A program made the translations under genes and the position numbers. Positions 1 to 39,499 of a stretch of DNA of 64,000 nucleotides are shown one piece after another. The notes under the pieces were generated by a model that saw only the letters and a list, made by a program, of their open reading frames with translations, made no database searches and was not told the DNA's origin. Position 1 is the stretch's first letter. Each line of letters opens with the position of its first letter. This stretch comes from Delphinapterus leucas (lineage: Eukaryota > Chordata > Mammalia > Artiodactyla > Monodontidae), in NCBI RefSeq assembly GCF_002288925.2, contig NW_022098044.1, positions 15,027,570-15,091,569 on the forward strand. Reading direction: 5' to 3'.

Positions 1-1160
1 AAATATGAAGAAAACAGAGACAGTGTAAGGGATAGAACTTGAGGTTGGCAGGTTGTAGAGTTAAGTGGCTTGTTTTTATATCTGCTCTGCTGTTTAGTGG
101 TTGTGTGACCTTGTGCTGATCTGAATTCTTCCTCTCAGAGTCTTCCATGATTTTAGGTGGTTGATGAATGAATCTATCAATATATTTCTTTTTAATCCCC
201 TTCAGGTATCAATATTATTCATGTATTTTCTAGCTATATGTAGAAAAAATCATTTAAAATGACTTAAAGATAGGAAGTTTAGGACTGTCTGGCACGACAT
301 TTGCTTTTTCAAATGACATCAAATTGTTGGCATCTCTAATCATTGTTTCCTTATAGCTAGGATACCACTTAGTATTGATGACACATGGAACAAAGCAGCA
401 GCATCCTTCTCTGCCTGCATTTGGTAAATTGCCACCAAAGTTTTCTCGTAATTGTAAAAATACCCCTTAGGCTGCAACTGTGGGTGATTCCTACCTTCAT
501 GCTGATCAAAAGAAAGAGAGCCTCATTTTTAGGTAAGAGTTCCCCTTTTGCCTTCAGAATTTTGACTTCCTGGAAGGGTCTAGTTGCTCGGTGGGTATTT
601 TGTTGGCTGTTAGTTTTTCTTGCTATCTGCAGCGGGAAGGCTCAGGGAGTCCTACGCTTCAGATAGTGATTTAGAACGTAACAGGGGACCCCTGGGGCTT
701 GGTGTCATTATGAGCTAAGGGAGGACATGGAGCAATGTCAGATGGAGTGGATTCATTAGAATAAATTGCGTGTTGAATTTCCATAGCAGCTCGGAGATGG
801 ATGTATTACTCTGCTGTCATGAAAGATTATCCTTTAATTGTTTTATATGCAAGTTCGAAGTGAACATCAGGGCAGAGCACTTGATTTATGAGCCACTTTT
901 TCTTTAGCCCTGAATTCAGAGTGTCAGTTCCTGAAAGGAGGGGCCCCCTGTACCCCAGAGCCTGGCACAAAATACGTGCTCAATAAATACTTACTTAGCC
1001 TCATGGAAACAAATACTCATGATGGTGAAATCCACCACTAAGAATTTTCATATAATCTTTTTGTGTTGGATTATATCAGTTGTCCTTATTTATATTTTTT
1101 AGATCATGGGATTCTTCAGAATAAAATGAAAGCCAAGGCCTCCCTTAATAGAGTCTACAC
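1..1160. other. Unassigned intronic sequence (also 11332-12491)
   Basis: AT-rich intron of SV2B. The only familiar piece is a MIR/L2-like tail near 950-1000 with CCTGGCAC and TGCTCAATAAATA. A 93-codon open frame at 385-666 has no recognisable domain and is not supported as a gene. Confidence 0.5.
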
Positions 1161-3460
1161 CGATTGCCGTATTTAGGAGTGTGGACTTGGTTCCACAGGC
1201 AATGCAAGAGCTATTAAATGGGGAGCTATTAAATGGCTTTGAGGAAGGGAGTGACGAGGTGGTTTTGGATGATGGCTCTACTCCTGTGATTTTGGTACTG
1301 GGAGTGGTTCTAGAGGAACAGAATCTTAAGGATGAGTTTACTGAATTGGTTCTGGAGCTTCTGGAATCAGTTCTCTAATCTGGTTAGATTTAAAGACACT
1401 ATTGACTCTATTTCCTGTAGTAAAGAGAGCACTTCCTGTTCACAACATGATGTGGCAATAGGGATACACAAGATATCATCATTGGATACTCCTATTCAAA
1501 TACTTACAAGAGGCAAGGATCTAGGTGAGCATTTTTGTCAAACTAACTGCTGTCAAAGTAACGAGTATGAGATTGGCTGGTTGCTCCTAATATCATTGAC
1601 AAAGTGGGAAAAGAAATTAATGAACTGAGGACTCGAATTCCCAGCACAAGCACTGCATAAATGACCCAAAATCTTCTATGTCTGCCCTGAAGGATACCTT
1701 TATCTCCTGAGATTGCTGACAACCAAACCCAGTATCTCATCCTCTGAGTGGCTGAATTACAGTACAGGTTGAATTCCCAGCCTCACAGCATGTCTACTGT
1801 TAAAGTAAAGGCATTGATAGGGAAGAAATAGCATCCTGGAAGTTGGCATGGGGATGTGTGGGAAGACCCTGATGCAGATGGGGACATTGAACTCCTAAAT
1901 TTTGATCAGTTCTCTTCGCCAATAGAAGCAGGCCCTCCACTCGTCTTGAGGGGATTAACCTTGCGTTGATGAGGAAGCTGTAATGGCCTCCCCTTAAGGC
2001 ACCTGCCTTGCAAGACATTGTTGATTCTCCTCAGGACCCCCACCCCTCTTTTCTTCTGGACTTATAACTAAACTCAAGTCCCTGCAGGTCCCTAAAAGTG
2101 AGGGTCAAAATGTGACCCATGAGGAGTTCTGCTACACTGCAAAAGAACTACTTGGTTTTTCTAATTTACACAGAAGTTCAGGGAATATGTGTGGGAATGG
2201 ATATTAGGGGGGTGGGGTAATGGTGGAAGGAACATAAATTTGGATTGGGCCACATTAATTGATATGGACCCGATAAACAGAGATTTCTGCATTTAATGTT
2301 GAAGCTCGGGGAGTTAGAAAGGGCTCTACTAGTTTGGTTGGTTGGTTGGCTAAAACATGGACCAAAAGTTGGCCCACAGTAAATGAACTTGAATGCCAGA
2401 CCTGCCTTGGTTTAATGTAGAGGAAGAGATTCAAAGGCTTAGGGAGATTGGAATGTTAGAGTGAATTTGTCATTTAACACCTACTCACCTGCCTTGGGGG
2501 GTTACACAGGACACACCTTTCACCATGACTATGAGAAATAAATTTGTGAGGGGACCCCCAGCATCCTTGAAGAGCTCTGTGATCACTCTTAAATGTAAGC
2601 CAGACCTCGCAGTGGGGACTTCAGTCACTGAAGTGAGAAACCTAAATGCAGAGTAATTGGACCCTGGGTGGCAGGGGCCAAGTGACAGTACTTAACCACC
2701 AAAGTCAAGGTGGACGTGATTACTGTAATGGACAGCAGAGTCAAAGCAGTACCTGACTCTAAGAGACTGTGGTATTCCCAGAAGTGAAATACATAGGAAG
2801 CCTACTAAATTTTTATTTGATCTGTATGAGCAGAAAAATTCCAGGTCAAGTGAACAAAAGTCTAACCTGTCTCATAAAAACAGTCACTGCCCCTCAATTG
2901 GTTCCCAGATTTGAGCCAGTTTATAGACCCAAAATCCATGAGTGAAGGGGAGGCTGGGTCCCCTTGAGGAAGGATCCCAGGCCGCTGCCAAAAATTTATA
3001 CTGGTTCATCTTTCTCCCGGTCTTCCCCAAGGGACCTTTGGCTTTTTACCAGCGTGACTGCGCGCTGGAGAAAAGGAAATAATCAGACCTTTTGAGGATT
3101 ACCAGACACTGGATCTGGACTGGCACTAATTCCAGGAGATTCAAAACATCACTGTGTTCTATCAGTCAGATTAGGGACTAATGGAGGCCAGGTGATCAAT
3201 GGAGTTTTGGCTCAGGCCCATCTCACAGAGGGCCCGGTAGGTCCCCAAATCCACCCTGTGGTTATTTCCCCAGTTCTGGAGTGCTTAACTGGAGTAGACA
3301 TATTTAGCAACTGGTAAAATCCCCACATTGACGAAAAATGGATTGTCAGGGAGAGAGACTAAGGTGGGAGATCTGACAGAAGTTTACTGGAGTACTCCAA
3401 GGGAGAAATACGCAATTCCTGGACTACTACATCGAGGAAACAGTAGAAGCTGTTTGAGTG
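1160..3460 (+). mobile_element. ERVL-class endogenous retrovirus relic, gag to protease (copy 1)
   Basis: The block 2040-2560 resembles the gag region of ERVL-type elements and 3100-3330 resembles the protease region, in the expected gag-then-pro order on the plus strand. The reading frames are broken by many stops and frameshifts, so no protein can be made. No flanking LTR was recognised. The assignment is from memory of the ERVL family and the outer limits are approximate. An identical block occurs in copy 2. Confidence 0.65.
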
Positions 3461-4760
3461 TTTTGAAAAATTGAGATTTTTTTATATAGAGCTTCAAAAT
3501 ATTTCTGCTATAAGCACCTTTTTTTCTTATTTAATATATGCAAGAAAGAAAACCGATGACTTATGCAAAGAAGACAACCCTTCCTAACTTCAAGAGATTG
3601 ACATTTTTACACAGCTGGCTGTGTTTATTGCAATAAAATCAGTGAATTCATAGTCAGAGGGTTGACTGTGACAAAGCTGATGAGTAAATTCAATTTTCTG
3701 TAACAAACATAAAGGAAGAAAAACAATTTCCTGTACAACCAACCAACCCACCAGCTAACCAAGCAACCAAAAAACCAGCATCGTAATTTCAAGATTAAAA
3801 GTTATTTCACAATTAACCATTGGGGTTAAGAAAAATCTTGCAAGGAGACCTTCTTGAAACAAAACCCTCAGTTTTATGATGCGGGCTACATGTTAAGTAT
3901 GGATTTAGCTTTGAGTGAGGCACTTTTCCCATTTGTCTACAGCTGTTTTTTAATTTTGTGCCTTTCAACTTAGTCCTACATCGAAGGATAGAGCCTACCT
4001 CAGTCTGAAAACATTTGTGTCAAAAACTATTAACCACTTATTCGAACTTATGGATCCTGGATTTCTACTCTGATTTTCATCAAGATTGAATCTAAGCTAT
4101 TTGGAGCTCTATGTGTGTAGGTTTTAGTTTTACATGGAGTAAATAGCATTGTCTGGAAAAAGAGGGGGAGGGGGAGGGGGAGAGGAGTACTTAGCTCTCA
4201 GGGCTGTTGGGAGAATTGAATGAGATCACCCTTCTAACTGTCCAGCTCAGGGTCTGCACACAGTATGTCCTCAGTTAATACTCATTCTGCTCTTCTGATC
4301 CATCTGATCCATCTGTTGGATCTTCTGATCCAACAACCTGATGATGTTCAGCTTCTAACTTGTTTGAACTTTCATTGTAGCAAAGATGTCTCAGTACATT
4401 CTGTCTACACTGCTTGCAGAACGTCTTTGGCCATGAGACCTTCAAAGACTTGAAGGTTTTTTGTTTTTGCTTTTGTTTTTCTCCACAGTTGTAAGCACAC
4501 TCCTTGAGACCTAAATAAAAGATGTTTGGTAACTAATGATTTATTAATTTGGGGAATAAAAATGTGCTAGTTACTTATTTATATGTATTCCCCTATATTT
4601 GTCCCCACCATGGAAAACTTTAGTGAATTAGAAAAAGCTCATAGGGCTGTTAATCCACATATTTGAAAATATAATCTTCAGACCATGGAAAATACAGCAG
4701 GAATGAATGGGAGAAATCCTTAAGTAAACTGTTATATTTACTGGGAATGGAGGGGAAGTT
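3461..4760. other. Unassigned intronic sequence with a short G-rich purine tract (also 14792-16091)
   Basis: No element was recognised. Around 4161-4187 (and 15492-15518) there is a purine run with three G5 tracts separated by single A residues. Short direct repeats of CTGATCCA occur near 4297-4330. No gene is supported. Confidence 0.5.
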
Positions 4761-4764
4761 GCAG

Positions 4765-4850
4765 GGTTGGGCATGTCTCCAGATATTGCAGAATATCCCC
4801 TGGAGGGACAAAGTCACCTCCAGTTGAGAGCCACTGCTCCAGGTGAGGGG
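4765..4850 (-). mobile_element. MER20-like hAT transposon fragment (copy at 16096-16181)
   Basis: The reverse complement carries the MER20 pattern: a GTGGCTCTCAACTGGAGGTGA start, then CCCTCCAGGGGA and a GTCTGGAGACAT block. It is a partial, non-coding copy of an old non-autonomous DNA transposon. The assignment is from memory of the family. Confidence 0.65.
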
Positions 4851-4910
4851 TTCTCCCCTCTGTCTGCCCATTTGAGTCACCTGAGGAGCTGTTAAAAAAT
4901 AAAACAGGCC

Positions 4911-5113
4911 CTGGGACTTCCCTGATGGTCCAGTGGTTAAGACTCCTCACTCCCAATGCAGGGGGCCCGGGTTCGATCCCTGGTCAGGGAACTAGAGCCC
5001 GAATGCTGCAACTAAAGATCCTGCACGAGGCAACGAAGATCCCATGTGCTGCAACTAAGACCCAGCTCAGCCAAATAAATAAATAAATATTATTTAAAAA
5101 ACAAAACAAAACA
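4911..5113 (+). mobile_element. CHR-family tRNA-derived SINE (copy 1)
   Basis: The head is GGGACTTCCCTGATGGTCCA, with a pol III B-box-like GGTTCGATCCC at 4970-4980. It ends in a TAAATAAATAAA and CAAAA-rich tail. The flanks carry the direct repeat AAAACAGGCC (4901-4910 and 5114-5123), a clean target-site duplication. It sits inside a MER5-like element, whose halves (GAGTCACCTGAGGAGCTG before, CTGCCTGGTGATTCTG after) it separates. Confidence 0.9.
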
Positions 5114-5124
5114 AAAACAGGCCT

Positions 5125-5819
5125 TGCTGTAGAATAATGCTGTCAGGGACTCTGTGAGTGAGGTATGGCATAGGCATTTTCCCACAGCTGCCTGGTGATT
5201 CTGTTGTGCAGCCGGGCTAGAAAACTAGGTAGTTTACACAGAGACTCAGGGTTATTAGGAGCTACTGAGTTGTCAGGGTTTTTTTATTGTGCTACCTAGG
5301 AATTCTCCCCAGATGGCTTCCTTCTTGAGTTTGTGGTGATGGATGGGATATTTGCATATACCTTGACCAGTGTAAGGAAAATGGGGCTGTACCCAAAAAT
5401 CTTGTTTACATTTGCAAACAAGATTATCAATGGATTTTGATATCCAAGAGATTATCAATGATTTTCATAGATACTCACATTTGATCTTGAAGTGAAACTG
5501 TGAGGTGGTCAGAGTGGTAATCCCAAGTTTATAGGATGAAGGAAGTGCTGCTTGAAGACCGTAAGTGATGCATATGGTTCCTAAGGTAGTTTTCTTGTCC
5601 TGCGTTGTCACTCATTGCCACTCATGTTCACTGTGGGTTACTTTATAGTAATGAGGTTGGAAGGTTTATTTTTTCATGTATGGATTTCTTCATAAAAGGC
5701 AAAGAACTAATGCTTAAGGGTTCATTATTTACCAGGACTGGTACAACCTCTGTTACCTTTCTTTTAAATTAAAATCAAATTATAATAATTATATTACTAC
5801 CACCACCAAAAATTACAGT
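5125..5819. other. Unassigned intronic sequence (also 16456-17150)
   Basis: Apart from the right part of a MER5-like fragment up to about 5230, nothing was recognised. An imperfect local duplication of GATTATCAATG occurs at 5422 and 5450. Confidence 0.45.
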
Positions 5820-5824
5820 TTGAT

Positions 5825-6040
5825 AAACTCTTTTATACTAAGCATTTTATATATGACATTTCTGATCCTTATAACAACCTGCAAGGGAAGCATTATTTTC
5901 ACTGTTTTACAAATGAGAAAACTTGGTCTCTAAGAGGTTAATGTAACTTGTCAAAACTAGTTAGTGATGGCTCTAGTAGTTGAAACCAGTTATTTCTGCC
6001 TGCAAAGTCTACTGCTGCTCCTTTACCTTGCTGTCCCATC
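5825..6040 (-). repeat. MIR SINE fragment (copy at 17156-17371)
   Basis: The plus strand shows the reverse-complement MIR pattern: ATAACAACCTGCAAGG, TTTTACAAATGAGAAAAC, AAGAGGTTAATGTAACTTG and a diverged AGTTAGTGATGG block. It is an ancient mammalian SINE relic without coding capacity. Confidence 0.75.
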
Positions 6041-7620
6041 TATGGAAGATGTCTCTAGGTGACCGTTACATAAGTAACCTTGAGCAACCTTTACACTAAA
6101 TGCATGACTCTGATAATATACAGTCGCCAAGTAGGCACTGGGCCTCCATCAGAGTGCTAGGGTCAGTTACAGCTTATCTCTGTAGGTGAGAGTATGATGT
6201 AGTCCACGTCCCAGCCAGCTGGACCAGAAAGGCCAGGTGCCGATTTCACCAGGGACTTGCAGTGATCTGAGGCATAGATTGTGAGCCCAGAATAGGCTGT
6301 CATATTGCTGAAGAGCAACACTGCCATCCACCCGTGAAAAGGGTCCCAAGGAATGCTCCATCACCTTTTTAGACCAGAGCAGCAGAGGCACAAAGGACTT
6401 CCCCACCCTCCTTCTGCCAGGAACCACATCAGACAATGGAACATTCTTGTCCAATGTGGAGTTCATGACTATACAGCTATCATGGCCCTTTGCAGGCCAG
6501 CAGGTGTAAAATCTCTCTGTATTTTATAACCCTTGTGCAGCACAAGCCCAGATGAGTTGGGTTTTTCTTTGGAAAGGATTGATTTCGTTTCCAGAGAAGT
6601 CTCAGATATTAGCAGAGCAGGGAGGAGGGAAGGGAGAGTCAGATAGATGGTCTTGGAAATGTAATAGCCTTTGACATGCCCCCTGGGGTCCACTGAACCG
6701 ATTGAACGTGAACACTCTTTTCTCCGTTCGGACGGGCCCAGGCTGCTCAAATGTGCAGAGTGAGCATCATCTGTTTCAACACCAGAGATTTTGCTGACTC
6801 AGAGGCGTGTATCAGTCTCCACTGGGGACGTGCAGCAAATAGCCTAAAGAAGTCGCATCCTTTCCTTGGCCTCTCTGCCTCACCTCTCCTTGGGTCCTAG
6901 AAAGGAAAGTCTTATCCTTCAAAGGAGATGTAACAACAGATTATAAGGCATAAGCCATTACTTAAAACATTATAGAATCGTCTAATATTAGAAGTGAAAG
7001 GGATAAAGGAGAACTCCTAACATGCCTTTCATTTCTAACTGGAGAAAACTGAGCCCCAAGGAGGAAGCGAGTTCTTCAAGGTCGTAAGCTCTGAGAGCAG
7101 GACCTGGGCCCCTGACAACTGGCACAGAGGTCTTTCCTCTATACAGAGTTGTCTTGCCTTTTGTTCTTAAGGAATGACTATGTAAATCAACCAGATGATC
7201 TTTCATCTGTATGCTTTCTTTTTTAGGAGGCGATATGTGTCTAGGATGTATTCAACTGCCGGTAACAATGACTTTGAATCATGAAGATGTTTATTCTTTA
7301 CTTATCAAGAATTCTTAAAGTAGGTAGTTCCAGGGTTGGGTCAATGGCTTACTGATGTCAGGACATTAGGCAAGGACATTCTTCTGGCCTTTCCGTCATG
7401 GTCGTAAGCTGACCACCATAGCTCTATGCTCTACATCCTCCCATGATGGCTTTCCAAGCAGGAAATGAGAGCGATGATGGCAAGAAAGTGCCTCTTCTGC
7501 AATGTTCTCTCTTTTATTGCACAAAAACATTGCCTAGTAGCCTTTGACAGACATCCCTGTATGTCTTATTGCTCTCCCTCAATTAAGAGTTGGATTCAGA
7601 GGACCATCTGAAGTTAACTA
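6041..7620. other. Mostly unassigned intronic sequence (also 17372-18951)
   Basis: A weak MIR-like stretch is visible near 6975-7120 (GAGAAAACTGAGCCCCAAGGAGG). The 93- and 99-codon open frames on the minus strand (6167-6750) show no domain and are taken as chance. Confidence 0.45.
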
Positions 7621-7640
7621 TGCTTCATCCCCTAGGGGGG

Positions 7641-7666
7641 TGTGTGTGTGTGTGTGTGTGTGTGTG
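7641..7666. repeat. (TG)13 microsatellite (copy at 18972-18997)
   Basis: There are thirteen TG units after a G6 run in both copies of the large duplication, with equal length. Identical length at such a mutable locus is evidence on the age or reality of the duplication. Confidence 0.95.
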
Positions 7667-7784
7667 AATTTCTCTGAACATATTTTAATACCTAACAAAA
7701 CCACGCTTCCTTTAACAAGGAAGAAGAGGGAAAAAGTCCTGTTGGGAATGTGACCAACAGAGTCTACCATATGTGTAAACACTT

Positions 7785-8005
7785 TAAAGGTGGACAGTCT
7801 GACTTAATATTTTGGCTCTATCACTAACTACCTCTACCATCTTAGACAAGTCACTTAGCCTCCCTGAACTTTGGTTTCATTATCTATAAGATTAAGATAT
7901 TATTAGTACCTTCCTCACAGAACTATTGTGAGGGGTGATAAGATAGTGTACATCAAGGGCTCATCAAAGTGCCCAGTAAGGACCCAACAAATATGATCTT
8001 GCTTT
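7785..8005 (+). repeat. MIR SINE (copy at 19116-19336)
   Basis: The MIR core reads in the forward direction: CTCTATCACTAACTA, TAGACAAGTCACTTAGCCTC, TTTCATTATCTATAAGATTAAG, ACCTTCCTCACAGAACTATTGTGAGG and a diverged tail before 8005. It is ancient and non-coding. Confidence 0.8.
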
Positions 8006-8269
8006 GTATATATATATATTTTATCTTATTGAATAACTCTTTAAGGAATCAATTATTTATTGAGTGGCTCATTGATGAATGACATACAAGTGCCTCCCTC
8101 ATGGAGGTAACGTTTTAGGGGGAAACAGACAATAAATGAGATGATTCTACCACCCCCCCACACCTTCCTAAACTCCATTCTTCCATTGGCAGGAGCAGGG
8201 GGTGATCCAGAACTCAGGGTGCTCTAGGTAGGTCCTTCAATACTTCTTTTCCCCCTAATACTACCAACC

Positions 8270-8878
8270 GTGCTACCAAAATTGGTTTTGAGACCTTCGG
8301 GAGCATGTTTACACCCTTTGTCACTGTACGTGTTGGTCACCATGAGAGGTCCATGTCTCCCAAGATGTTCATTATCACCCAGACTTTCATCCCCCTATGG
8401 CACTGTGCATCCTTTTTTTTCCCCTATCTCATCTCCCACCTCTTCCCTTAATGTCATTTGCCTTTTTGCTACAACTGAAATGTATTCTCCTCTGAGGACG
8501 TTACTTAGCCCTGCAGTCTTAGTGGGTGGCTGTTTCCTTTTTCATATTCCACACCCCTGTACCATTGCTCCTCCTGGCTCCCCCATGACATTTCCAGACC
8601 ATTCTCCCTTCCTCCTCCTTAAAACATTCCTCATTTGCATCTCCTGCCCTCAGAGGGTATCACCTAGCATGCATCCTTGTTGCAGTCATCTACTGGCCCC
8701 CTGTGTCATGCCCCCTCATTCCTTGAGGAATTGACATTTCCAGACCATTCTCCCTTCCTCCTCCTTAAAACATTCCTCATTTGCATCTCCTGCCCTCAGA
8801 GGGTATCACCCAGCACGCATCCTTGTTGCAGTCATCTACTGGCCCCCTGTGTCATGCCCCCTCATTCCTTGAGGAATT
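8270..8878 (+). mobile_element. L2 LINE relic, cut by the duplication junction
   Basis: This is the same sequence as the first part of the L2 relic at 19601-21740. Here it stops at 8878, where MIR sequence follows at once. A 154-codon open frame runs through it but shows no protein domain. It contains the nested 146-base tandem repeat. Confidence 0.6.
8587..8878 (+). repeat. Two-unit tandem repeat, 146-base period (copy at 19918-20209)
   Basis: Unit 1 is 8587-8732 and unit 2 is 8733-8878; both begin GACATTTCCAGACCATTCTC and end CCTTGAGGAATT. They differ at a few bases (CCTAGCATGC against CCCAGCACGC). The end of unit 2 coincides exactly with the end of identity between the two 11.3-kb copies. 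The same two units with the same differences are present at 19918-20209. Confidence 0.95.
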
Positions 8879-8998
8879 GGTATCTTACCTCATAGGGTTT
8901 TTGAGGGCTAAATGGATTTAATGCATTTAACTTGCCTGAAACAGTGCCTGCCCATAATAGGTGCTCATTTTAGTTATTATTGTTGAGGTTGTTATTAT
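8879..8998 (+). repeat. MIR 3' half, starting abruptly at the duplication junction
   Basis: It opens with GGTATCTTACCTCATAGGGTT, followed by GGCTAAATGGATTTAATGCA, ACAGTGCCTGCCCATAATAGG and TGCTCATTTTAGTTATTATT, the typical second half of a MIR. The first half is missing at the inferred junction. If the tandem model is right, the missing half should lie left of the window, beyond 2453 bases. Confidence 0.8.
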
Positions 8999-9189
8999 TA
9001 CTAAGTTGATTGCTTGATAATGATGACTCATCCAAATTCAGGACTAGATTTTCTCAGGTGACATTGCATATTTCTTTAACCCAAAGTTATTTATAATAGG
9101 CTTTTAAGGTCAAGCTTCCCTACCTTGGCTGGTGAAAAGGCCTTTTCTGTTCAAGTGCTAACCCAGTTCTTTCTTTCCCCTTCCTAGCT

Positions 9190-10590
9190 ATTTTTTTTTT
9201 TTAAGACAATATTTTTTTGAGAAGTTTTAGGTTCACAGACAAATTGAGAGGAAGGTACAGAGGTTTTCTTTATGCCCCTTCCCCACACACATACATCGTC
9301 TCCTCCTATTATCAACATCCTCTAGCAGATGTACGTTGTTACAGTTGATGAACCTACATTGACACATCATAATCACCCAAAGTCCATAGTTTATTTTTAC
9401 CTTAGGGTTCAATCTTGCTGTTACACATTCAATGGGCCCGACAAATGTGTAATGACATATAGCCATCATTACAGTATCATACAGAGAATTTTCACTGCCC
9501 TAAAATTCTTTGTGCTCTGCCTATTCATCTCTCCCCACTTCCCCAACCCCTGGAAACAACTGACTTTTTTTTTTTTACTGTCTGCATAAGGTTTTTTCTT
9601 TTCCAGAATTTCATATAATTGGACTCATATAGTATGTAGCCTTTTCAAATTGCTTTCTTTTGCTTAGTAATATGCATTTAAGTTTCCTCCATGTCTTTTC
9701 ATGGATTAATAGCTCATGTCTTTTTAGTGTTGAATAATATTCCATTGTCTGGATGTACCACAGATTATTTGTCCAGTCACCTACTGAAGGACATCTTGGT
9801 TGCTTCCAAGTTTTGACAATTATGAATAAAACTGCTATAAATGTCCACGTGCAGGTTTTTGTATGGACATAGTTTTCAATTCCTTTGGGAAAGTATCAAG
9901 GAGTGTGATTGCTGGATTGCATGGTAAGAAAAAGTTTGGTTTTGTAAGAAACTGCCGAAGTCTCCTAAAGTGGCTGCGCCATTTTGCTTTCCCACCAGCA
10001 ATGAACGAGAGTTCCTGTTGCTCCACATCCTCGCCAGTATTTGGTGTCTTCAGTGTTCTGGATTTGGTCATACTGATAGGTGTGAAGTGATATCCCGTTT
10101 TTTTTTTTTTTTTTTTTTTTTTTCTTTGCGGTACGCGGGCCTCTCACTGTTGTGGCCTCTCCCGTTGCGGAGCACAGGCTCCGGACGCGCAGGCTCAGTG
10201 GCCGTGGCTCACGGGCCCAGCCGCTCTGCGGCATGTGGGATCTTCCCGGACCGGGGCACGAACCCGCGTCCCCTGCATCGGCAGGCGGACTCTCAACCAC
10301 TGCGCCACCAGAGAAGCCCTATCCCGTTGTTTTAATTTGCATTACTCTGATGACATATGGTGTGGAGCATCCTTCCATATATTTATTTGCCATCTGTATA
10401 CCTTCTTTGGTGAAGTGTTTATTAAGGTCTTTGACCCATTTTTAAAGAAGGATTTTGTTTTCTTATTGTTGAGTTTTAAGAGTTCTTTGTAGGTTTTGGA
10501 TAACAGTCCTTTATCAGATGTGTCTTTTGCAAATATTTTCTACCAGTCTGTGACCTGTCTTCTCATTCTCTTAACTCTCTTTTATTTTAA
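9190..10590 (-). mobile_element. Old L1 (L1M-like) 3' fragment, antisense to SV2B
   Basis: From the left it reads a T-rich stretch, AAGTTTTAGGTTCACAGAC, then AGTATGTAGCC, ATAATATTCCATTGTCTGG, CTGTAGG-type 3' ORF2 sequence and TTTTTATTATTGAGTTTTAAG, the reverse complement of an L1 3' end. The frame is broken and the 5' part is missing. A CHR SINE at 10100-10319 splits it. In this window it occurs only once, because its tandem partner would lie left of position 1. Confidence 0.8.
10100..10319 (-). mobile_element. CHR-2-type SINE inserted in L1
   Basis: Read on the minus strand, the head is GGGCTTCTCTGGTGGCGCAG, followed by the tRNA-derived promoter part, the CGGAGCCTGTGCTCCGCAAC body and a long A tail (T run at 10098-10123). 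The flanking direct repeat TATCCCGTT (10091-10099 and 10320-10328) is the target-site duplication. High similarity to the SINEs at 40123 and 50892 suggests a young family. Confidence 0.93.
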
Positions 10591-10600
10591 AAAGAAACTG

Positions 10601-10723
10601 GGGGAGTTCCTTGGTGGTCTAGTGGTTAGGACTCGGTGCTTTCACTGCCGTGGCCTGGGTTCAATCCCTTGTGGGGGAACTGAGATCCCTCAAGACCTGC
10701 AGCTCAGCAAAAAAAAAAAAAAA
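10601..10723 (+). mobile_element. Short CHR-S-like SINE
   Basis: It begins GGGGAGTTCCTTGGTGGTCT, has a B-box-like GGGTTCAATCCC, and ends in a poly(A) run. Imperfect flanking repeats AAAGAAACTG and AAAGGAAACTG frame it. It is a short tRNA-derived cetartiodactyl SINE related to the one at 4911. Confidence 0.85.
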
Positions 10724-11331
10724 AGGAAACTGAAAGTGATATGCCTCTGGACTTAACTCCTAGTTGATGTTCCAGGGAAAGAATTCAGAAGGAGAACTCT
10801 TCCTACCCCCAAATACGGGCCTCAAATTATAGACTATTTTGTTATTTTCTTCCTGGAAATGGATGAACCATTCAGAAAATAAAAGAAGCGTCCCCAGGCC
10901 GGGTAACAAAAATATCTGGGTACCGCTGTGCCACTTTGCTGAGGTTTTAGAAAGATGAAAGTTTGCTTCCTTGAAGGGTTGTGTTTTAGTGAGTCACTTG
11001 TCTAGAACTGTCTCAGTTGGGGAAGAAGAAGTCCTGTGAAAATGTTATTAGCATTGAAGGGTCAGCCCTGCTTCTTATAAAGTGGTTGGTCCCCTTTAAG
11101 ACAAAAAGAATGCATTCATTTGTTAATTAGACTCTTTATTATTATTTTTAAAAGAATTGCTGGGCATTTCCGCATGCCTGTATTCCCTCTATGGCAATGC
11201 AAGACAGGCAGGTCCCAGCACTCAGTGTGTTTTATTCTAATGGTGAAAATAGAGTTCATACAAGAAATATAAAATACCAAACAGCACTATGCAATTATGC
11301 AATGCAATTTTCAGTATTATCCCTGTTATTC
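10724..11331. other. Unassigned intronic sequence
   Basis: No gene or familiar repeat was recognised. The stretch ends where the internal identity with position 1 begins, but that edge is the window edge, not a biological breakpoint. Confidence 0.5.
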
Positions 11332-12490
11332 AAATATGAAGAAAACAGAGACAGTGTAAGGGATAGAACTTGAGGTTGGCAGGTTGTAGAGTTAAGTGGC
11401 TTGTTTTTATATCTGCTCTGCTGTTTAGTGGTTGTGTGACCTTGTGCTGATCTGAATTCTTCCTCTCAGAGTCTTCCATGATTTTAGGTGGTTGATGAAT
11501 GAATCTATCAATATATTTCTTTTTAATCCCCTTCAGGTATCAATATTATTCATGTATTTTCTAGCTATATGTAGAAAAAATCATTTAAAATGACTTAAAG
11601 ATAGGAAGTTTAGGACTGTCTGGCACGACATTTGCTTTTTCAAATGACATCAAATTGTTGGCATCTCTAATCATTGTTTCCTTATAGCTAGGATACCACT
11701 TAGTATTGATGACACATGGAACAAAGCAGCAGCATCCTTCTCTGCCTGCATTTGGTAAATTGCCACCAAAGTTTTCTCGTAATTGTAAAAATACCCCTTA
11801 GGCTGCAACTGTGGGTGATTCCTACCTTCATGCTGATCAAAAGAAAGAGAGCCTCATTTTTAGGTAAGAGTTCCCCTTTTGCCTTCAGAATTTTGACTTC
11901 CTGGAAGGGTCTAGTTGCTCGGTGGGTATTTTGTTGGCTGTTAGTTTTTCTTGCTATCTGCAGCGGGAAGGCTCAGGGAGTCCTACGCTTCAGATAGTGA
12001 TTTAGAACGTAACAGGGGACCCCTGGGGCTTGGTGTCATTATGAGCTAAGGGAGGACATGGAGCAATGTCAGATGGAGTGGATTCATTAGAATAAATTGC
12101 GTGTTGAATTTCCATAGCAGCTCGGAGATGGATGTATTACTCTGCTGTCATGAAAGATTATCCTTTAATTGTTTTATATGCAAGTTCGAAGTGAACATCA
12201 GGGCAGAGCACTTGATTTATGAGCCACTTTTTCTTTAGCCCTGAATTCAGAGTGTCAGTTCCTGAAAGGAGGGGCCCCCTGTACCCCAGAGCCTGGCACA
12301 AAATACGTGCTCAATAAATACTTACTTAGCCTCATGGAAACAAATACTCATGATGGTGAAATCCACCACTAAGAATTTTCATATAATCTTTTTGTGTTGG
12401 ATTATATCAGTTGTCCTTATTTATATTTTTTAGATCATGGGATTCTTCAGAATAAAATGAAAGCCAAGGCCTCCCTTAATAGAGTCTACA

Positions 12491-14791
12491 CCGATTGCCG
12501 TATTTAGGAGTGTGGACTTGGTTCCACAGGCAATGCAAGAGCTATTAAATGGGGAGCTATTAAATGGCTTTGAGGAAGGGAGTGACGAGGTGGTTTTGGA
12601 TGATGGCTCTACTCCTGTGATTTTGGTACTGGGAGTGGTTCTAGAGGAACAGAATCTTAAGGATGAGTTTACTGAATTGGTTCTGGAGCTTCTGGAATCA
12701 GTTCTCTAATCTGGTTAGATTTAAAGACACTATTGACTCTATTTCCTGTAGTAAAGAGAGCACTTCCTGTTCACAACATGATGTGGCAATAGGGATACAC
12801 AAGATATCATCATTGGATACTCCTATTCAAATACTTACAAGAGGCAAGGATCTAGGTGAGCATTTTTGTCAAACTAACTGCTGTCAAAGTAACGAGTATG
12901 AGATTGGCTGGTTGCTCCTAATATCATTGACAAAGTGGGAAAAGAAATTAATGAACTGAGGACTCGAATTCCCAGCACAAGCACTGCATAAATGACCCAA
13001 AATCTTCTATGTCTGCCCTGAAGGATACCTTTATCTCCTGAGATTGCTGACAACCAAACCCAGTATCTCATCCTCTGAGTGGCTGAATTACAGTACAGGT
13101 TGAATTCCCAGCCTCACAGCATGTCTACTGTTAAAGTAAAGGCATTGATAGGGAAGAAATAGCATCCTGGAAGTTGGCATGGGGATGTGTGGGAAGACCC
13201 TGATGCAGATGGGGACATTGAACTCCTAAATTTTGATCAGTTCTCTTCGCCAATAGAAGCAGGCCCTCCACTCGTCTTGAGGGGATTAACCTTGCGTTGA
13301 TGAGGAAGCTGTAATGGCCTCCCCTTAAGGCACCTGCCTTGCAAGACATTGTTGATTCTCCTCAGGACCCCCACCCCTCTTTTCTTCTGGACTTATAACT
13401 AAACTCAAGTCCCTGCAGGTCCCTAAAAGTGAGGGTCAAAATGTGACCCATGAGGAGTTCTGCTACACTGCAAAAGAACTACTTGGTTTTTCTAATTTAC
13501 ACAGAAGTTCAGGGAATATGTGTGGGAATGGATATTAGGGGGGTGGGGTAATGGTGGAAGGAACATAAATTTGGATTGGGCCACATTAATTGATATGGAC
13601 CCGATAAACAGAGATTTCTGCATTTAATGTTGAAGCTCGGGGAGTTAGAAAGGGCTCTACTAGTTTGGTTGGTTGGTTGGCTAAAACATGGACCAAAAGT
13701 TGGCCCACAGTAAATGAACTTGAATGCCAGACCTGCCTTGGTTTAATGTAGAGGAAGAGATTCAAAGGCTTAGGGAGATTGGAATGTTAGAGTGAATTTG
13801 TCATTTAACACCTACTCACCTGCCTTGGGGGGTTACACAGGACACACCTTTCACCATGACTATGAGAAATAAATTTGTGAGGGGACCCCCAGCATCCTTG
13901 AAGAGCTCTGTGATCACTCTTAAATGTAAGCCAGACCTCGCAGTGGGGACTTCAGTCACTGAAGTGAGAAACCTAAATGCAGAGTAATTGGACCCTGGGT
14001 GGCAGGGGCCAAGTGACAGTACTTAACCACCAAAGTCAAGGTGGACGTGATTACTGTAATGGACAGCAGAGTCAAAGCAGTACCTGACTCTAAGAGACTG
14101 TGGTATTCCCAGAAGTGAAATACATAGGAAGCCTACTAAATTTTTATTTGATCTGTATGAGCAGAAAAATTCCAGGTCAAGTGAACAAAAGTCTAACCTG
14201 TCTCATAAAAACAGTCACTGCCCCTCAATTGGTTCCCAGATTTGAGCCAGTTTATAGACCCAAAATCCATGAGTGAAGGGGAGGCTGGGTCCCCTTGAGG
14301 AAGGATCCCAGGCCGCTGCCAAAAATTTATACTGGTTCATCTTTCTCCCGGTCTTCCCCAAGGGACCTTTGGCTTTTTACCAGCGTGACTGCGCGCTGGA
14401 GAAAAGGAAATAATCAGACCTTTTGAGGATTACCAGACACTGGATCTGGACTGGCACTAATTCCAGGAGATTCAAAACATCACTGTGTTCTATCAGTCAG
14501 ATTAGGGACTAATGGAGGCCAGGTGATCAATGGAGTTTTGGCTCAGGCCCATCTCACAGAGGGCCCGGTAGGTCCCCAAATCCACCCTGTGGTTATTTCC
14601 CCAGTTCTGGAGTGCTTAACTGGAGTAGACATATTTAGCAACTGGTAAAATCCCCACATTGACGAAAAATGGATTGTCAGGGAGAGAGACTAAGGTGGGA
14701 GATCTGACAGAAGTTTACTGGAGTACTCCAAGGGAGAAATACGCAATTCCTGGACTACTACATCGAGGAAACAGTAGAAGCTGTTTGAGTG
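12491..14791 (+). mobile_element. ERVL-class endogenous retrovirus relic (copy 2)
   Basis: This is the duplicate of 1160-3460 at offset 11331, with the same broken frames. It has no independent history: it was copied with the surrounding tandem duplication. Confidence 0.65.
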
Positions 14792-16241
14792 TTTTGAAAA
14801 ATTGAGATTTTTTTATATAGAGCTTCAAAATATTTCTGCTATAAGCACCTTTTTTTCTTATTTAATATATGCAAGAAAGAAAACCGATGACTTATGCAAA
14901 GAAGACAACCCTTCCTAACTTCAAGAGATTGACATTTTTACACAGCTGGCTGTGTTTATTGCAATAAAATCAGTGAATTCATAGTCAGAGGGTTGACTGT
15001 GACAAAGCTGATGAGTAAATTCAATTTTCTGTAACAAACATAAAGGAAGAAAAACAATTTCCTGTACAACCAACCAACCCACCAGCTAACCAAGCAACCA
15101 AAAAACCAGCATCGTAATTTCAAGATTAAAAGTTATTTCACAATTAACCATTGGGGTTAAGAAAAATCTTGCAAGGAGACCTTCTTGAAACAAAACCCTC
15201 AGTTTTATGATGCGGGCTACATGTTAAGTATGGATTTAGCTTTGAGTGAGGCACTTTTCCCATTTGTCTACAGCTGTTTTTTAATTTTGTGCCTTTCAAC
15301 TTAGTCCTACATCGAAGGATAGAGCCTACCTCAGTCTGAAAACATTTGTGTCAAAAACTATTAACCACTTATTCGAACTTATGGATCCTGGATTTCTACT
15401 CTGATTTTCATCAAGATTGAATCTAAGCTATTTGGAGCTCTATGTGTGTAGGTTTTAGTTTTACATGGAGTAAATAGCATTGTCTGGAAAAAGAGGGGGA
15501 GGGGGAGGGGGAGAGGAGTACTTAGCTCTCAGGGCTGTTGGGAGAATTGAATGAGATCACCCTTCTAACTGTCCAGCTCAGGGTCTGCACACAGTATGTC
15601 CTCAGTTAATACTCATTCTGCTCTTCTGATCCATCTGATCCATCTGTTGGATCTTCTGATCCAACAACCTGATGATGTTCAGCTTCTAACTTGTTTGAAC
15701 TTTCATTGTAGCAAAGATGTCTCAGTACATTCTGTCTACACTGCTTGCAGAACGTCTTTGGCCATGAGACCTTCAAAGACTTGAAGGTTTTTTGTTTTTG
15801 CTTTTGTTTTTCTCCACAGTTGTAAGCACACTCCTTGAGACCTAAATAAAAGATGTTTGGTAACTAATGATTTATTAATTTGGGGAATAAAAATGTGCTA
15901 GTTACTTATTTATATGTATTCCCCTATATTTGTCCCCACCATGGAAAACTTTAGTGAATTAGAAAAAGCTCATAGGGCTGTTAATCCACATATTTGAAAA
16001 TATAATCTTCAGACCATGGAAAATACAGCAGGAATGAATGGGAGAAATCCTTAAGTAAACTGTTATATTTACTGGGAATGGAGGGGAAGTTGCAGGGTTG
16101 GGCATGTCTCCAGATATTGCAGAATATCCCCTGGAGGGACAAAGTCACCTCCAGTTGAGAGCCACTGCTCCAGGTGAGGGGTTCTCCCCTCTGTCTGCCC
16201 ATTTGAGTCACCTGAGGAGCTGTTAAAAAATAAAACAGGCC

Positions 16242-16444
16242 CTGGGACTTCCCTGATGGTCCAGTGGTTAAGACTCCTCACTCCCAATGCAGGGGGCCCG
16301 GGTTCGATCCCTGGTCAGGGAACTAGAGCCCGAATGCTGCAACTAAAGATCCTGCACGAGGCAACGAAGATCCCATGTGCTGCAACTAAGACCCAGCTCA
16401 GCCAAATAAATAAATAAATATTATTTAAAAAACAAAACAAAACA
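16242..16444 (+). mobile_element. CHR-family tRNA-derived SINE (copy 2)
   Basis: Duplicate of the SINE at 4911-5113, including its AAAACAGGCC target-site duplication (16232-16241 and 16445-16454). Two independent insertions would not share one target site, so this copy arose by segmental duplication or by assembly. Confidence 0.9.
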
Positions 16445-19400
16445 AAAACAGGCCTTGCTGTAGAATAATGCTGTCAGGGACTCTGTGAGTGAGGTATGGC
16501 ATAGGCATTTTCCCACAGCTGCCTGGTGATTCTGTTGTGCAGCCGGGCTAGAAAACTAGGTAGTTTACACAGAGACTCAGGGTTATTAGGAGCTACTGAG
16601 TTGTCAGGGTTTTTTTATTGTGCTACCTAGGAATTCTCCCCAGATGGCTTCCTTCTTGAGTTTGTGGTGATGGATGGGATATTTGCATATACCTTGACCA
16701 GTGTAAGGAAAATGGGGCTGTACCCAAAAATCTTGTTTACATTTGCAAACAAGATTATCAATGGATTTTGATATCCAAGAGATTATCAATGATTTTCATA
16801 GATACTCACATTTGATCTTGAAGTGAAACTGTGAGGTGGTCAGAGTGGTAATCCCAAGTTTATAGGATGAAGGAAGTGCTGCTTGAAGACCGTAAGTGAT
16901 GCATATGGTTCCTAAGGTAGTTTTCTTGTCCTGCGTTGTCACTCATTGCCACTCATGTTCACTGTGGGTTACTTTATAGTAATGAGGTTGGAAGGTTTAT
17001 TTTTTCATGTATGGATTTCTTCATAAAAGGCAAAGAACTAATGCTTAAGGGTTCATTATTTACCAGGACTGGTACAACCTCTGTTACCTTTCTTTTAAAT
17101 TAAAATCAAATTATAATAATTATATTACTACCACCACCAAAAATTACAGTTTGATAAACTCTTTTATACTAAGCATTTTATATATGACATTTCTGATCCT
17201 TATAACAACCTGCAAGGGAAGCATTATTTTCACTGTTTTACAAATGAGAAAACTTGGTCTCTAAGAGGTTAATGTAACTTGTCAAAACTAGTTAGTGATG
17301 GCTCTAGTAGTTGAAACCAGTTATTTCTGCCTGCAAAGTCTACTGCTGCTCCTTTACCTTGCTGTCCCATCTATGGAAGATGTCTCTAGGTGACCGTTAC
17401 ATAAGTAACCTTGAGCAACCTTTACACTAAATGCATGACTCTGATAATATACAGTCGCCAAGTAGGCACTGGGCCTCCATCAGAGTGCTAGGGTCAGTTA
17501 CAGCTTATCTCTGTAGGTGAGAGTATGATGTAGTCCACGTCCCAGCCAGCTGGACCAGAAAGGCCAGGTGCCGATTTCACCAGGGACTTGCAGTGATCTG
17601 AGGCATAGATTGTGAGCCCAGAATAGGCTGTCATATTGCTGAAGAGCAACACTGCCATCCACCCGTGAAAAGGGTCCCAAGGAATGCTCCATCACCTTTT
17701 TAGACCAGAGCAGCAGAGGCACAAAGGACTTCCCCACCCTCCTTCTGCCAGGAACCACATCAGACAATGGAACATTCTTGTCCAATGTGGAGTTCATGAC
17801 TATACAGCTATCATGGCCCTTTGCAGGCCAGCAGGTGTAAAATCTCTCTGTATTTTATAACCCTTGTGCAGCACAAGCCCAGATGAGTTGGGTTTTTCTT
17901 TGGAAAGGATTGATTTCGTTTCCAGAGAAGTCTCAGATATTAGCAGAGCAGGGAGGAGGGAAGGGAGAGTCAGATAGATGGTCTTGGAAATGTAATAGCC
18001 TTTGACATGCCCCCTGGGGTCCACTGAACCGATTGAACGTGAACACTCTTTTCTCCGTTCGGACGGGCCCAGGCTGCTCAAATGTGCAGAGTGAGCATCA
18101 TCTGTTTCAACACCAGAGATTTTGCTGACTCAGAGGCGTGTATCAGTCTCCACTGGGGACGTGCAGCAAATAGCCTAAAGAAGTCGCATCCTTTCCTTGG
18201 CCTCTCTGCCTCACCTCTCCTTGGGTCCTAGAAAGGAAAGTCTTATCCTTCAAAGGAGATGTAACAACAGATTATAAGGCATAAGCCATTACTTAAAACA
18301 TTATAGAATCGTCTAATATTAGAAGTGAAAGGGATAAAGGAGAACTCCTAACATGCCTTTCATTTCTAACTGGAGAAAACTGAGCCCCAAGGAGGAAGCG
18401 AGTTCTTCAAGGTCGTAAGCTCTGAGAGCAGGACCTGGGCCCCTGACAACTGGCACAGAGGTCTTTCCTCTATACAGAGTTGTCTTGCCTTTTGTTCTTA
18501 AGGAATGACTATGTAAATCAACCAGATGATCTTTCATCTGTATGCTTTCTTTTTTAGGAGGCGATATGTGTCTAGGATGTATTCAACTGCCGGTAACAAT
18601 GACTTTGAATCATGAAGATGTTTATTCTTTACTTATCAAGAATTCTTAAAGTAGGTAGTTCCAGGGTTGGGTCAATGGCTTACTGATGTCAGGACATTAG
18701 GCAAGGACATTCTTCTGGCCTTTCCGTCATGGTCGTAAGCTGACCACCATAGCTCTATGCTCTACATCCTCCCATGATGGCTTTCCAAGCAGGAAATGAG
18801 AGCGATGATGGCAAGAAAGTGCCTCTTCTGCAATGTTCTCTCTTTTATTGCACAAAAACATTGCCTAGTAGCCTTTGACAGACATCCCTGTATGTCTTAT
18901 TGCTCTCCCTCAATTAAGAGTTGGATTCAGAGGACCATCTGAAGTTAACTATGCTTCATCCCCTAGGGGGGTGTGTGTGTGTGTGTGTGTGTGTGTGAAT
19001 TTCTCTGAACATATTTTAATACCTAACAAAACCACGCTTCCTTTAACAAGGAAGAAGAGGGAAAAAGTCCTGTTGGGAATGTGACCAACAGAGTCTACCA
19101 TATGTGTAAACACTTTAAAGGTGGACAGTCTGACTTAATATTTTGGCTCTATCACTAACTACCTCTACCATCTTAGACAAGTCACTTAGCCTCCCTGAAC
19201 TTTGGTTTCATTATCTATAAGATTAAGATATTATTAGTACCTTCCTCACAGAACTATTGTGAGGGGTGATAAGATAGTGTACATCAAGGGCTCATCAAAG
19301 TGCCCAGTAAGGACCCAACAAATATGATCTTGCTTTGTATATATATATATTTTATCTTATTGAATAACTCTTTAAGGAATCAATTATTTATTGAGTGGCT

Positions 19401-19600
19401 CATTGATGAATGACATACAAGTGCCTCCCTCATGGAGGTAACGTTTTAGGGGGAAACAGACAATAAATGAGATGATTCTACCACCCCCCCACACCTTCCT
19501 AAACTCCATTCTTCCATTGGCAGGAGCAGGGGGTGATCCAGAACTCAGGGTGCTCTAGGTAGGTCCTTCAATACTTCTTTTCCCCCTAATACTACCAACC

Positions 19601-21740
19601 GTGCTACCAAAATTGGTTTTGAGACCTTCGGGAGCATGTTTACACCCTTTGTCACTGTACGTGTTGGTCACCATGAGAGGTCCATGTCTCCCAAGATGTT
19701 CATTATCACCCAGACTTTCATCCCCCTATGGCACTGTGCATCCTTTTTTTTCCCCTATCTCATCTCCCACCTCTTCCCTTAATGTCATTTGCCTTTTTGC
19801 TACAACTGAAATGTATTCTCCTCTGAGGACGTTACTTAGCCCTGCAGTCTTAGTGGGTGGCTGTTTCCTTTTTCATATTCCACACCCCTGTACCATTGCT
19901 CCTCCTGGCTCCCCCATGACATTTCCAGACCATTCTCCCTTCCTCCTCCTTAAAACATTCCTCATTTGCATCTCCTGCCCTCAGAGGGTATCACCTAGCA
20001 TGCATCCTTGTTGCAGTCATCTACTGGCCCCCTGTGTCATGCCCCCTCATTCCTTGAGGAATTGACATTTCCAGACCATTCTCCCTTCCTCCTCCTTAAA
20101 ACATTCCTCATTTGCATCTCCTGCCCTCAGAGGGTATCACCCAGCACGCATCCTTGTTGCAGTCATCTACTGGCCCCCTGTGTCATGCCCCCTCATTCCT
20201 TGAGGAATTTAGTGCCAGGTTTACTGTCACTATTTCCATTATAATTCTTGGTGATTTCAGTAAGCACTTTCCAATATCCTAGTTTCTTTCCTTAAAGTCT
20301 TCTGCAATGATATCCCCCCCTCCTAATCACCTACTGTCCTGGTCTTACCCTAGGTCTTATTGTTATCGATTACTCCAACCCCTCCACAATCCCAATGTCA
20401 AGTACCCCTTCTTCTGTCTTTCTAGCTCACTCTATCCAGTCCTCCAGCTTCCACAATTGTTCAACCTCATGAGACCTACAGCCTTTTGGTCTGTCACTCA
20501 CCACGCTTTTGTCCTCATCCCATTCTTCACTGAACTTAAATTCTGTGAGCCAGAATCATAACCGCCATCAACTTCCTTGTGCCTCTCTTTTTCGTCGTGT
20601 CCCTCAGCTCTGGTTACACCTCACTCTTCATCAGCCTGTCCCTGTACCCTGTAGCTGAACACGGCTGGTGAGATACACACCATGTCGTCCACTGGTCTCA
20701 CTTCAAATTTATTGTCAATAACCTCAAGGGCGCCCTTGTGCTGCCAGCCATCATCCTTCATTCCCCTGAATTATTCACTTTCCCAGTCTCCTTGATGACA
20801 ATTTCATGCCTCATCCTCTGTTTTCCAGTTCCCAGCGCCTCCTCCCCATCTTTACCCTCAGCATAATGAACTCAGTTCCTCTTTCACTGAGAAAACAGAA
20901 GCAACCAGAAAAGAACTCCCACAGTGCCTACCTCCACACTTACGTTCCTAACTGCCCCTGGGCTTCCATCTTATTCCTGTTGCTGTGGAGGAGCTGCGAG
21001 GCTCATCTGTCTACTCTCAGGCTAGATTCTCATCCACTCTCACTTCCCCAGGGTACCACTTTCATAATTCTCACCTTCCTCTCCCTCATCTATTTTTCTG
21101 TCTATCTCAAGTCATTCCCATCAGCACACAAACATGATACAGTTTCTCTAATCCTGACTTCACACACATCTCTTCTGTTTTCAGTAAAACTCACTAAATC
21201 CAAGTCCTCACTTTCCATTTTTGCTCAATTTTGAGCAGAATTTAGTCCCCAACACTTCAGAAAACTGTTCTTGTCTAGATCACTAGTGACCCCCACTTGG
21301 TCAGTCGAGTGGTCCAGTCTCAGTCCTCCACATTCCGGACCTGTCAGCAGCAACTGTAAGAGTTCAGCCCTCCCGCCTCCTTGAAACACTTTCTTTATTG
21401 GATGTCTAGGCTACCCCTGCCTCCAGTTTCCCTGCTGTTCCACTGGCCACTCCTTCTCATTTTCCATTGCTGGTTTCTCTTCATCTTCCTGACCCTTAAA
21501 CACTGGAACATTTCAGTACTCAGCCAAGGAAGCTCCTCTCTATTGCCACTCACTTCTTTGGAGAGCTGATGCAATCTCTGCTTTATATACCATCCATTCT
21601 CTTGACTCAACCTTTAAAATACAACCAGAATCCAGCCACTTCTTACTATTTCCACTGCCACCAGTCACTCCACTCCAAGCTGTCAGTGTCACTCACTTGG
21701 GATATAATGGCCTTCTAACTGGGCTTTGTGATTCCACCTG
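19601..21740 (+). mobile_element. L2 LINE relic, endonuclease to reverse transcriptase region
   Basis: An ancient L2-clade non-LTR retrotransposon in the forward orientation. Near 20245 the sequence ATTCTTGGTGATTTCAG translates ILGDFS, a degenerate form of the G-D-F-N endonuclease motif. The stretches 21440-21540 and 21630-21720 follow the L2 consensus as I remember it (TGCTCCTTCTC, CCCTTAAACACTGGAACAT, CAGCCACTTCTTACTATTTCCA, GGCCTTCTAACTGG). Frames are broken throughout. Only the first part, up to 20209, is duplicated at 8270-8878. Confidence 0.7.
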
Positions 21741-28393: not shown

Positions 28394-28549
28394 CCGGCCT
28401 GGAGCTAGGAGACCAGAGTGTAGTGCCAGCAGATCCCGGGCCAGCAGAGAGCTTCCGAGAGAGTCCCTGACCTTCTCTGGTATTCAGTCTCCTCATCGAG
28501 TACAGCTAAGGGATTGAACTCAATGTCTAATCTCTAAGATTCATCCATT

Positions 28550-33701: not shown

Positions 33702-33882
33702 GGCTGATAGTCTACCTAGGAATGATGGGGGGAGCCTTCATCCTGGGGGGCCTGGCTGATAAGCTGGGGAGGAAGCGAGTTCTCAGCATGTCCCTGGCCG
33801 TCAACGCCTCCTTCGCCTCCCTCTCTTCCTTCGTACAGGGATATGGAGCCTTCCTCTTCTGCAGACTCATCTCAGGCATAGG
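33702..33882 (+). CDS. SV2B: SV2B internal coding exon (TM2 to TM4 region), probably exon 3
   Basis: This exon encodes part of synaptic vesicle glycoprotein 2B, a 12-helix member of the major facilitator superfamily in synaptic and secretory vesicle membranes. It is framed by a pyrimidine-rich acceptor ending CACAG at 33701 and a GTGCGT donor at 33883. The exon is 181 bases: two bases finish a split Gly codon, 59 codons follow, and two bases (GG) are left over. The translation contains GGLADKLGRKRVL, the MFS loop 2-3 signature (G-x-x-x-D-x-x-G-R-K), then SLAVNASFASLSSFVQGYG and FCRLISGIG, leading into helix 4. From memory of the paralogues, the KRVLSMSLAVNAS stretch fits SV2B; SV2A differs here. 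The YLGMMGGAF segment has Gly where I recall Ala or Val. The preceding exon, with the start codon, is not in the window. Confidence 0.95.
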
Positions 33883-34229
33883 GTGCGTAATTACAGAGGT
33901 TCAGCTGGACCTCCCCCCACACCAACCCCAAGACCAGTGGTCCATCATCCATCCTGATACCCTGACTCTGAGTGGTACCTCCAGAAAACTTTGAACTGAG
34001 TTTTTGTTTGACTTCCAAGATACTGTGTTAAAGTTGAACCTTAGAAAGGGGTTAGGCTGTAAAGTCAGTCATAAGGTCAAAATAATCCGACACTGCCTTG
34101 GCCGGTCTTTCGAATTCACTGGGTTATTTCACCACTGAGCCTAAGGGTGGGACAAGGCAATTGGGTTCCTGCTATGACCATTTTTAGTGTCTGACTTGGT
34201 TCTTACTTTCTGGCATTTTCTCTCTGCAG

Positions 34230-34381
34230 TATTGGGGGTTCTCTGCCCATTGTTTTTGCCTATTTTTCTGAATTCTTGTCCCGGGAGAAACGAGGAGAGC
34301 ATCTCAGTTGGTTAGGCATCTTCTGGATGACTGGAGGCATCTATGCATCTGCCATGGCCTGGAGCATCATTCCACACTATG
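34230..34381 (+). CDS. SV2B: SV2B internal coding exon (TM4 to TM5 region)
   Basis: The acceptor is TCTCTGCAG ending at 34229 and the donor is GTGAGT at 34382. The exon is 152 bases: one base completes the Gly codon split with the previous exon, then 50 codons, then one base carried over. The translation reads IGGSLPIVFAYFSEF, then the charged cytoplasmic segment LSREKRGEHLSW, then GIFWMTGGIYASAMAWSIIPHY. Two hydrophobic stretches fit helices 4 and 5 of the MFS fold. The intron to the previous exon is only 347 bases and the phase matches exactly. The choice of SV2B over SV2A or SV2C rests on FLSREKRGEHLSWLGIFW as I remember the paralogues. No stop or frameshift is present. Confidence 0.96.
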
Positions 34382-35202: not shown

Positions 35203-35276
35203 TATTTATTGAAGTATAGTTGACTTACAATGTTGTGTTAGTTTCAGATGTACAGCAAAGAGATACAGTTATTCTT
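35203..35276 (-). mobile_element. Older L1, 3'-end piece left of a nested L1 insertion
   Basis: TTTATTGAAGTATAGTTGACTTACAATG and GATGTACAGCAAAGAGATACAGTTATTCTT is the reverse complement of an L1 3' terminus. It breaks off after ATTCTT and resumes at 41933, beyond a younger L1. It is one half of a split element. Confidence 0.75.
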
Positions 35277-39409: not shown

Positions 39410-39499
39410 TTTCTTAATTGTTTTGTGTTTGTTTTTGCAGGTCCTTTTCTTCTCTTGTGTTTCCCACCTAGGGAAGTTCCTTTAGCATTTGTTGTAAAA

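What the first reader, a model, noticed from the sequence alone, without database searches (positions are those of the whole stretch)
1..20209. Exact 11331-base tandem duplication in an SV2B intron
Positions 1-8878 recur at 11332-20209 with a constant offset of 11331 at every landmark checked. The identity ends at 20209/20210, so for a simple tandem event the unit is 8879-20209 and copy 1 starts 2453 bases left of the window. The unit carries an ERVL relic, SINEs, MIRs and half of an L2. If real, it is a recent structural variant in a neuronal gene.
Basis: partly seen in the sequence, partly recalled or inferred. Interest (0 to 1): 0.75.

Follow-up and report, generated by a model that had tools for sequence, protein, structure and literature searches.

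The report
Near-exact 11.3-kb tandem duplication, SV2B intron
In this whale- or dolphin-like genome assembly an 11,331-base piece of an intron of the brain gene SV2B stands twice in a row with one letter different; it is either a very recent duplication in the animal or, slightly more likely, a copy made by mistake when this gapped assembly was put together.

Summary
Window 1-8878 equals 11332-20209 with 0 differences. It is a head-to-tail tandem duplication, not a dispersed one. A MIR element is whole at the left flank and cut at 8878/8879, so 8878/8879 is the derived junction. The gene is SV2B. Both copies lie in the roughly 39.5-kb intron between coding matches ending at -5821 and starting at 33707. 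No function is indicated. Whether the duplication exists in the animal cannot be settled without reads. For real: a gapless junction with 1 bp of microhomology. For an assembly error: 8 N-runs in 264 kb, 2 of them flanked by unmerged-looking direct repeats; near-zero divergence; and a distal breakpoint on the edge of a 146-bp tandem repeat, where short-read contigs tend to end (inference). I put 0.52 on a false duplication, 0.45 on a real recent one. Ordinary either way; one read-depth check decides.

The parts
1..8878 (+). Copy 1 of the duplicated unit, the part inside the window (the copy begins at -2452, 2453 bases left of position 1)
   Evidence: 0 mismatches to 11332-20209; left start and full length from fetched flank
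8879..20209 (+). Copy 2, complete, 11,331 bp; 1 mismatch to copy 1 (T at 9600 versus C at -1731)
8878..8879 (.). Derived junction: end of the unit joined to a MIR cut in the middle; 1 bp (T) of microhomology; no N
20209..20210 (.). Right breakpoint, taken as the ancestral continuation to the right of the unit (inferred)
8586..8731 (+). 146-bp tandem repeat, unit A in copy 1
8732..8877 (+). 146-bp tandem repeat, unit B in copy 1; differs from A at 2 of 146 sites; ends 1 base before the end of copy 1
19917..20209 (+). The same 146-bp tandem pair in copy 2 (TRF coordinates)
8880..8979 (+). 3' part of a MIR, cut at the junction; the same MIR is unbroken at -2581 to -2352
   Evidence: alignment to a recalled MIR consensus: score 106 at the left flank, 45.5 at the junction
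4919..4992 (+). tRNA-derived SINE head (repeated at 16250-16323)
10607..10680 (+). tRNA-derived SINE head in copy 2 (its twin in copy 1 lies left of the window, by the offset)
33707..33883 (+). SV2B coding match to residues 15-73 of the recalled SV2A query; the duplication lies in the intron before it
   Evidence: gene named SV2B from coding exon 1 at L006:3727-4179
34231..34383 (+). next SV2B coding match

Best explanation
The sequence holds a head-to-tail tandem duplication of 11,331 bp. Slightly more likely than not it is a false duplication of the assembly: two overlapping contigs or alleles of the same locus were placed one after the other. Contig 1 ended at the edge of the 146-bp tandem repeat, contig 2 began 11.3 kb upstream inside the MIR, and the join was closed without N. 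Shown: the structure, the junction, the N-runs and the repeats beside two of them. Inferred: that no such junction exists in the animal's DNA, and the way the join was made.
For: The scaffold looks gapped: 8 runs of N (10 to 400 long) in 264 kb, 3 of 8 at simple repeats (poly-T, (GT)n, (TA)n). 2 of 8 are flanked edge to edge by direct repeats of 161 bp (99.4%) and 252 bp (99.2%), as unmerged contig ends would be; of 400 random points drawn, 0 showed a near-identical edge overlap (points near N were skipped, number not counted). The two copies differ at 1 of 11,331 sites, which fits two alleles of one locus at heterozygosity near 1e-4 (P of at most 1 difference 0.69 at 1e-4, 0.34 at 2e-4). The distal breakpoint lies 1 base from the end of a 146-bp tandem repeat; a de Bruijn graph with k below 146 branches there (inference). 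[quoted passage not shown]
Against: There is no N at the junction, while false duplications are 'most often' separated by a gap and only 'sometimes' joined through incorrect gap filling or other errors (PMC9516828, passages read). The 2 repeats beside N-runs are far more diverged (3 of 413 sites) than this pair (1 of 11,331; Fisher P 1.7e-4), so they may be another kind of error, or real repeats: the 264 kb also holds a gapless 151-bp direct repeat at 96.7% (-99705/-99564). N can also mark stretches that the operators withhold, so not each N-run need be an assembly gap. At heterozygosity 5e-4 or more, at most 1 difference is unlikely (0.023 at 5e-4). I do not know how the assembly was made, and a survey of other scaffolds was not possible.
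Confidence: 0.52

Rival explanations
1. A real, very recent and probably polymorphic intronic tandem duplication in the sequenced animal, made by end joining or by replication template switching with 1 bp of microhomology. It is neutral or nearly so, being wholly intronic (inferred).
For: Clean gapless junction; MIR unbroken at the left flank and cut at the junction; 1 bp microhomology. No place off C53 matched the junction probe and only 2 near-identical places matched the unit probe. Blunt joins or microhomology of 1-4 bp are named as signs of NHEJ in PMC6258378 (passages read). At 1.58e-8 per site per generation (a rate seen in a passage of the blue whale paper PMC10919930) 1 difference means about 2,800 generations, 95% range 71 to 15,600.
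Against: Short-read assemblers usually collapse exact repeats of this length (general knowledge; that this is a short-read assembly is inferred). The coincidence with the 146-bp repeat edge has a chance of about 3 in 11,331 if independent. The scaffold shows unmerged-looking repeats at 2 of 8 N-runs.
Confidence: 0.45
2. A dispersed rather than tandem duplication.
For: None found.
Against: The 2453 bases left of the window match 8879-11331 with 1 difference, and the copies abut.
Confidence: 0.01

Closest known systems
False duplications from overlapping or haplotype contigs (PMC2864568 and PMC9516828, passages read)
   Same: Two adjacent near-identical copies on one scaffold that also has N-runs; repeats at the edges of 2 of 8 N-runs nearby.
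   Different: No N between the copies; divergence of only 9e-5.
Recent non-recurrent tandem duplication CNVs with short-microhomology junctions
   Same: Head-to-tail, clean junction, 1 bp microhomology, breakpoints that share no long homology.
   Different: No reads or second individual; distal breakpoint shared with a 146-bp tandem duplication.

Membership tests
Tandem segmental duplication | Head-to-tail, abutting copies | tested here: met
   copy 1 -2452..8878, copy 2 8879..20209
Tandem segmental duplication | High identity over more than 1 kb | tested here: met
   11,330 of 11,331
Tandem segmental duplication | Junction carried by real molecules, raised read depth | not testable with these tools
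   no reads available
False assembly duplication | Gap or unsupported join between the copies | tested here: inconclusive
   no N at the junction; support by reads not testable
False assembly duplication | Haploid or lower read depth over the copies, discordant read pairs | not testable with these tools
   no reads available
False assembly duplication | Assembly prone to unmerged contig ends | tested here: inconclusive
   2 of 8 N-runs in 264 kb flanked edge to edge by 99% direct repeats; real repeats or withheld stretches are not excluded; no other scaffold could be surveyed
NAHR-type duplication | Long homology between the two breakpoints | tested here: not met
   1 bp of shared sequence
SV2B gene | Best match SV2B rather than SV2A | tested here: met
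   151 aa of coding exon 1: 314 bits to SV2B (8uo8), 165.8 bits to the best SV2A

The most novel reading that the evidence does not exclude
One replication accident made both duplications: a fork failed twice at the same base, restarting once 146 bp back and once 11.3 kb back, with errors in the short copy. A hairpin with a 5-bp stem ends 1 base before the site (0.9% of window positions end such a hairpin). The assembler may then have blurred how many 146-bp units each long copy carries.
Probability: 0.1. Interest if true: 0.35.

Novelty: new member of a known kind. Interest (0 to 1): 0.15.

Why it matters
If real, it is a young intronic copy-number variant in a synaptic gene of a cetacean (order by recalled SINE types), useful as a marker but with no sign of function. 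If false, it is an example of a gapless false duplication that a gap-based filter would miss. Either way it warns against reading near-identical tandem copies in gapped scaffolds as biology.

Tried and rejected
Dispersed duplication: rejected by the left flank. Homology-driven (NAHR) origin: not met, 1 bp of shared sequence. Pfam on 10 ORFs of the unit and right flank, chosen from 108 listed, to confirm the L2 and ERVL labels: 9 of 10 had no match, one had a chance-level hit to TPR_ESP1 (E 0.16, below its cut-off), so those labels stay unconfirmed. Hairpins at the junction: a 5-bp stem ends at 8877 and a 4-bp stem starts at 8879 (background of hairpin ends 0.9% and 3.1% of positions; none ends at 8878 itself); looked for after seeing the site, so weak. 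Polarising the single difference: T in 6 of 6 repeat relatives examined (those with fetched loci, of 38 listed), so the C of copy 1 is probably derived; this does not tell real from false. Paper searches: 6; SV2B with cetacean gave one birdsong paper, seen in the listing only. Passages were read in PMC10919930, PMC9516828, PMC3219603, PMC6258378 and PMC2864568; no paper was read whole.

Full report
Check of the observation. A base-by-base comparison finds 1-8878 identical to 11332-20209, with mismatches starting at 8879/20210. The window is G000:C53:15027570-15091569 of a 2.35-Gb assembly of 324 contigs. A 161-bp junction probe matched five places, all on C53 and all predicted by a tandem unit: the junction itself, the left start of copy 1, the right end of copy 2 and the two 146-bp A units. 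I fetched 100 kb on each side. The repeat extends left to -2452, the unit is 11,331 bp, the copies abut, and they differ at one site, C at -1731 and T at 9600. In the assembly two places match a 221-bp unit probe at nearly 100%; the other 38 of 40 matches listed are 79-83% relatives (40 scored of 3779 first-look candidates). Two more probes did not complete.

Which junction is new. Aligned to a recalled MIR consensus, the left flank carries a MIR that runs unbroken from -2581 to -2352 (consensus 21-258, score 106), through the left breakpoint. At 8878/8879 only its 3' part is present (score 45.5). So the left flank is ancestral and 8878/8879 is the derived join. The join shares 1 bp (T) and has no inserted bases or N. 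That the right breakpoint 20209/20210 is the ancestral continuation follows from the tandem layout; I could not confirm an L2 running through it.

Where it lies. With recalled SV2A letters as query, eleven tblastn matches lie on the + strand from 33707 to 89118 (one of them weak, E 0.065), and coding exon 1 matches to -5821. Translating exon 1 from its start codon gives 314 bits to the SV2B entry 8uo8 over residues 1-151, against 165.8 bits to the best SV2A. Both copies lie in one intron of about 39.5 kb; no match of these queries at E up to 1 falls inside the unit. tRNA-type SINEs look like the CHR family of cetaceans, by recall; the species is not known to me.

The nested repeat. Each long copy ends in a 146-bp tandem pair whose two units differ at 2 of 146 sites, and the long unit ends 1 base after that pair. 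If the two breakpoints were independent, agreement within 1 bp has a chance of about 3 in 11,331. So either the site was used twice, or one event made both, or the repeat edge is where the assembly broke. The last is the simplest.

Real or false. The 264 kb around the window hold 8 N-runs of 10 to 400 bases, none in the window. I read them as assembly gaps, though N can also mark withheld stretches. Two of the 8 are flanked edge to edge by direct repeats of 161 bp (1 difference) and 252 bp (2 differences); a third has only an 82% match away from its edges, and five have none. Of 400 random points drawn, none showed such an overlap, points near N being skipped. That is how unmerged contig ends look, but real repeats that stopped an assembler would look the same, and the stretch also holds a gapless 151-bp direct repeat at 96.7%. 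PMC2864568 (passages) describes haplotype contigs placed side by side as false segmental duplications. PMC9516828 (passages) says false duplications are most often separated by a gap, sometimes joined by incorrect gap filling, and that its authors found a true allele-specific tandem duplication in one contig. Against falsity here stand the missing gap and the very low divergence: 1 of 11,331 against 3 of 413 beside the two N-runs (Fisher P 1.7e-4). At heterozygosity 1e-4 at most one difference is expected of two alleles (0.69), at 5e-4 it is not (0.023). If real, the age estimate is about 2,800 generations, 95% range 71 to 15,600, using a rate seen in a passage of PMC10919930. I weigh this, by judgement, as 0.52 false and 0.45 real.

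Verdict. The biological claim is open and ordinary in either case. No function is indicated.

Noticed in passing
L012 (about -60935 to -60514 relative to the window) and L023 (about 138205 to 139108): N-runs of 100 and 400 flanked edge to edge by 161-bp and 252-bp near-identical direct repeats, like unmerged contig ends.
   Followed up: partly
35269-40131 and 56071-60863: Two copies of a long interspersed repeat, 83-88% alike in pieces, with strong AT skew; probably LINE-1 (recalled, not tested).
   Followed up: no
27389-27542 and 28244-28398: An inverted repeat of about 155 bp at 92% identity with about 700 bp between the arms.
   Followed up: no
9600 (and -1731): The only difference between the copies; T is shared with 6 of 6 repeat relatives examined, so copy 1's C is probably the derived base.
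   Followed up: yes
L015, about -99705 to -99414: A gapless 151-bp direct repeat at 96.7% identity, offset 141: short tandem repeats like the 146-bp one occur elsewhere in the stretch.
   Followed up: no
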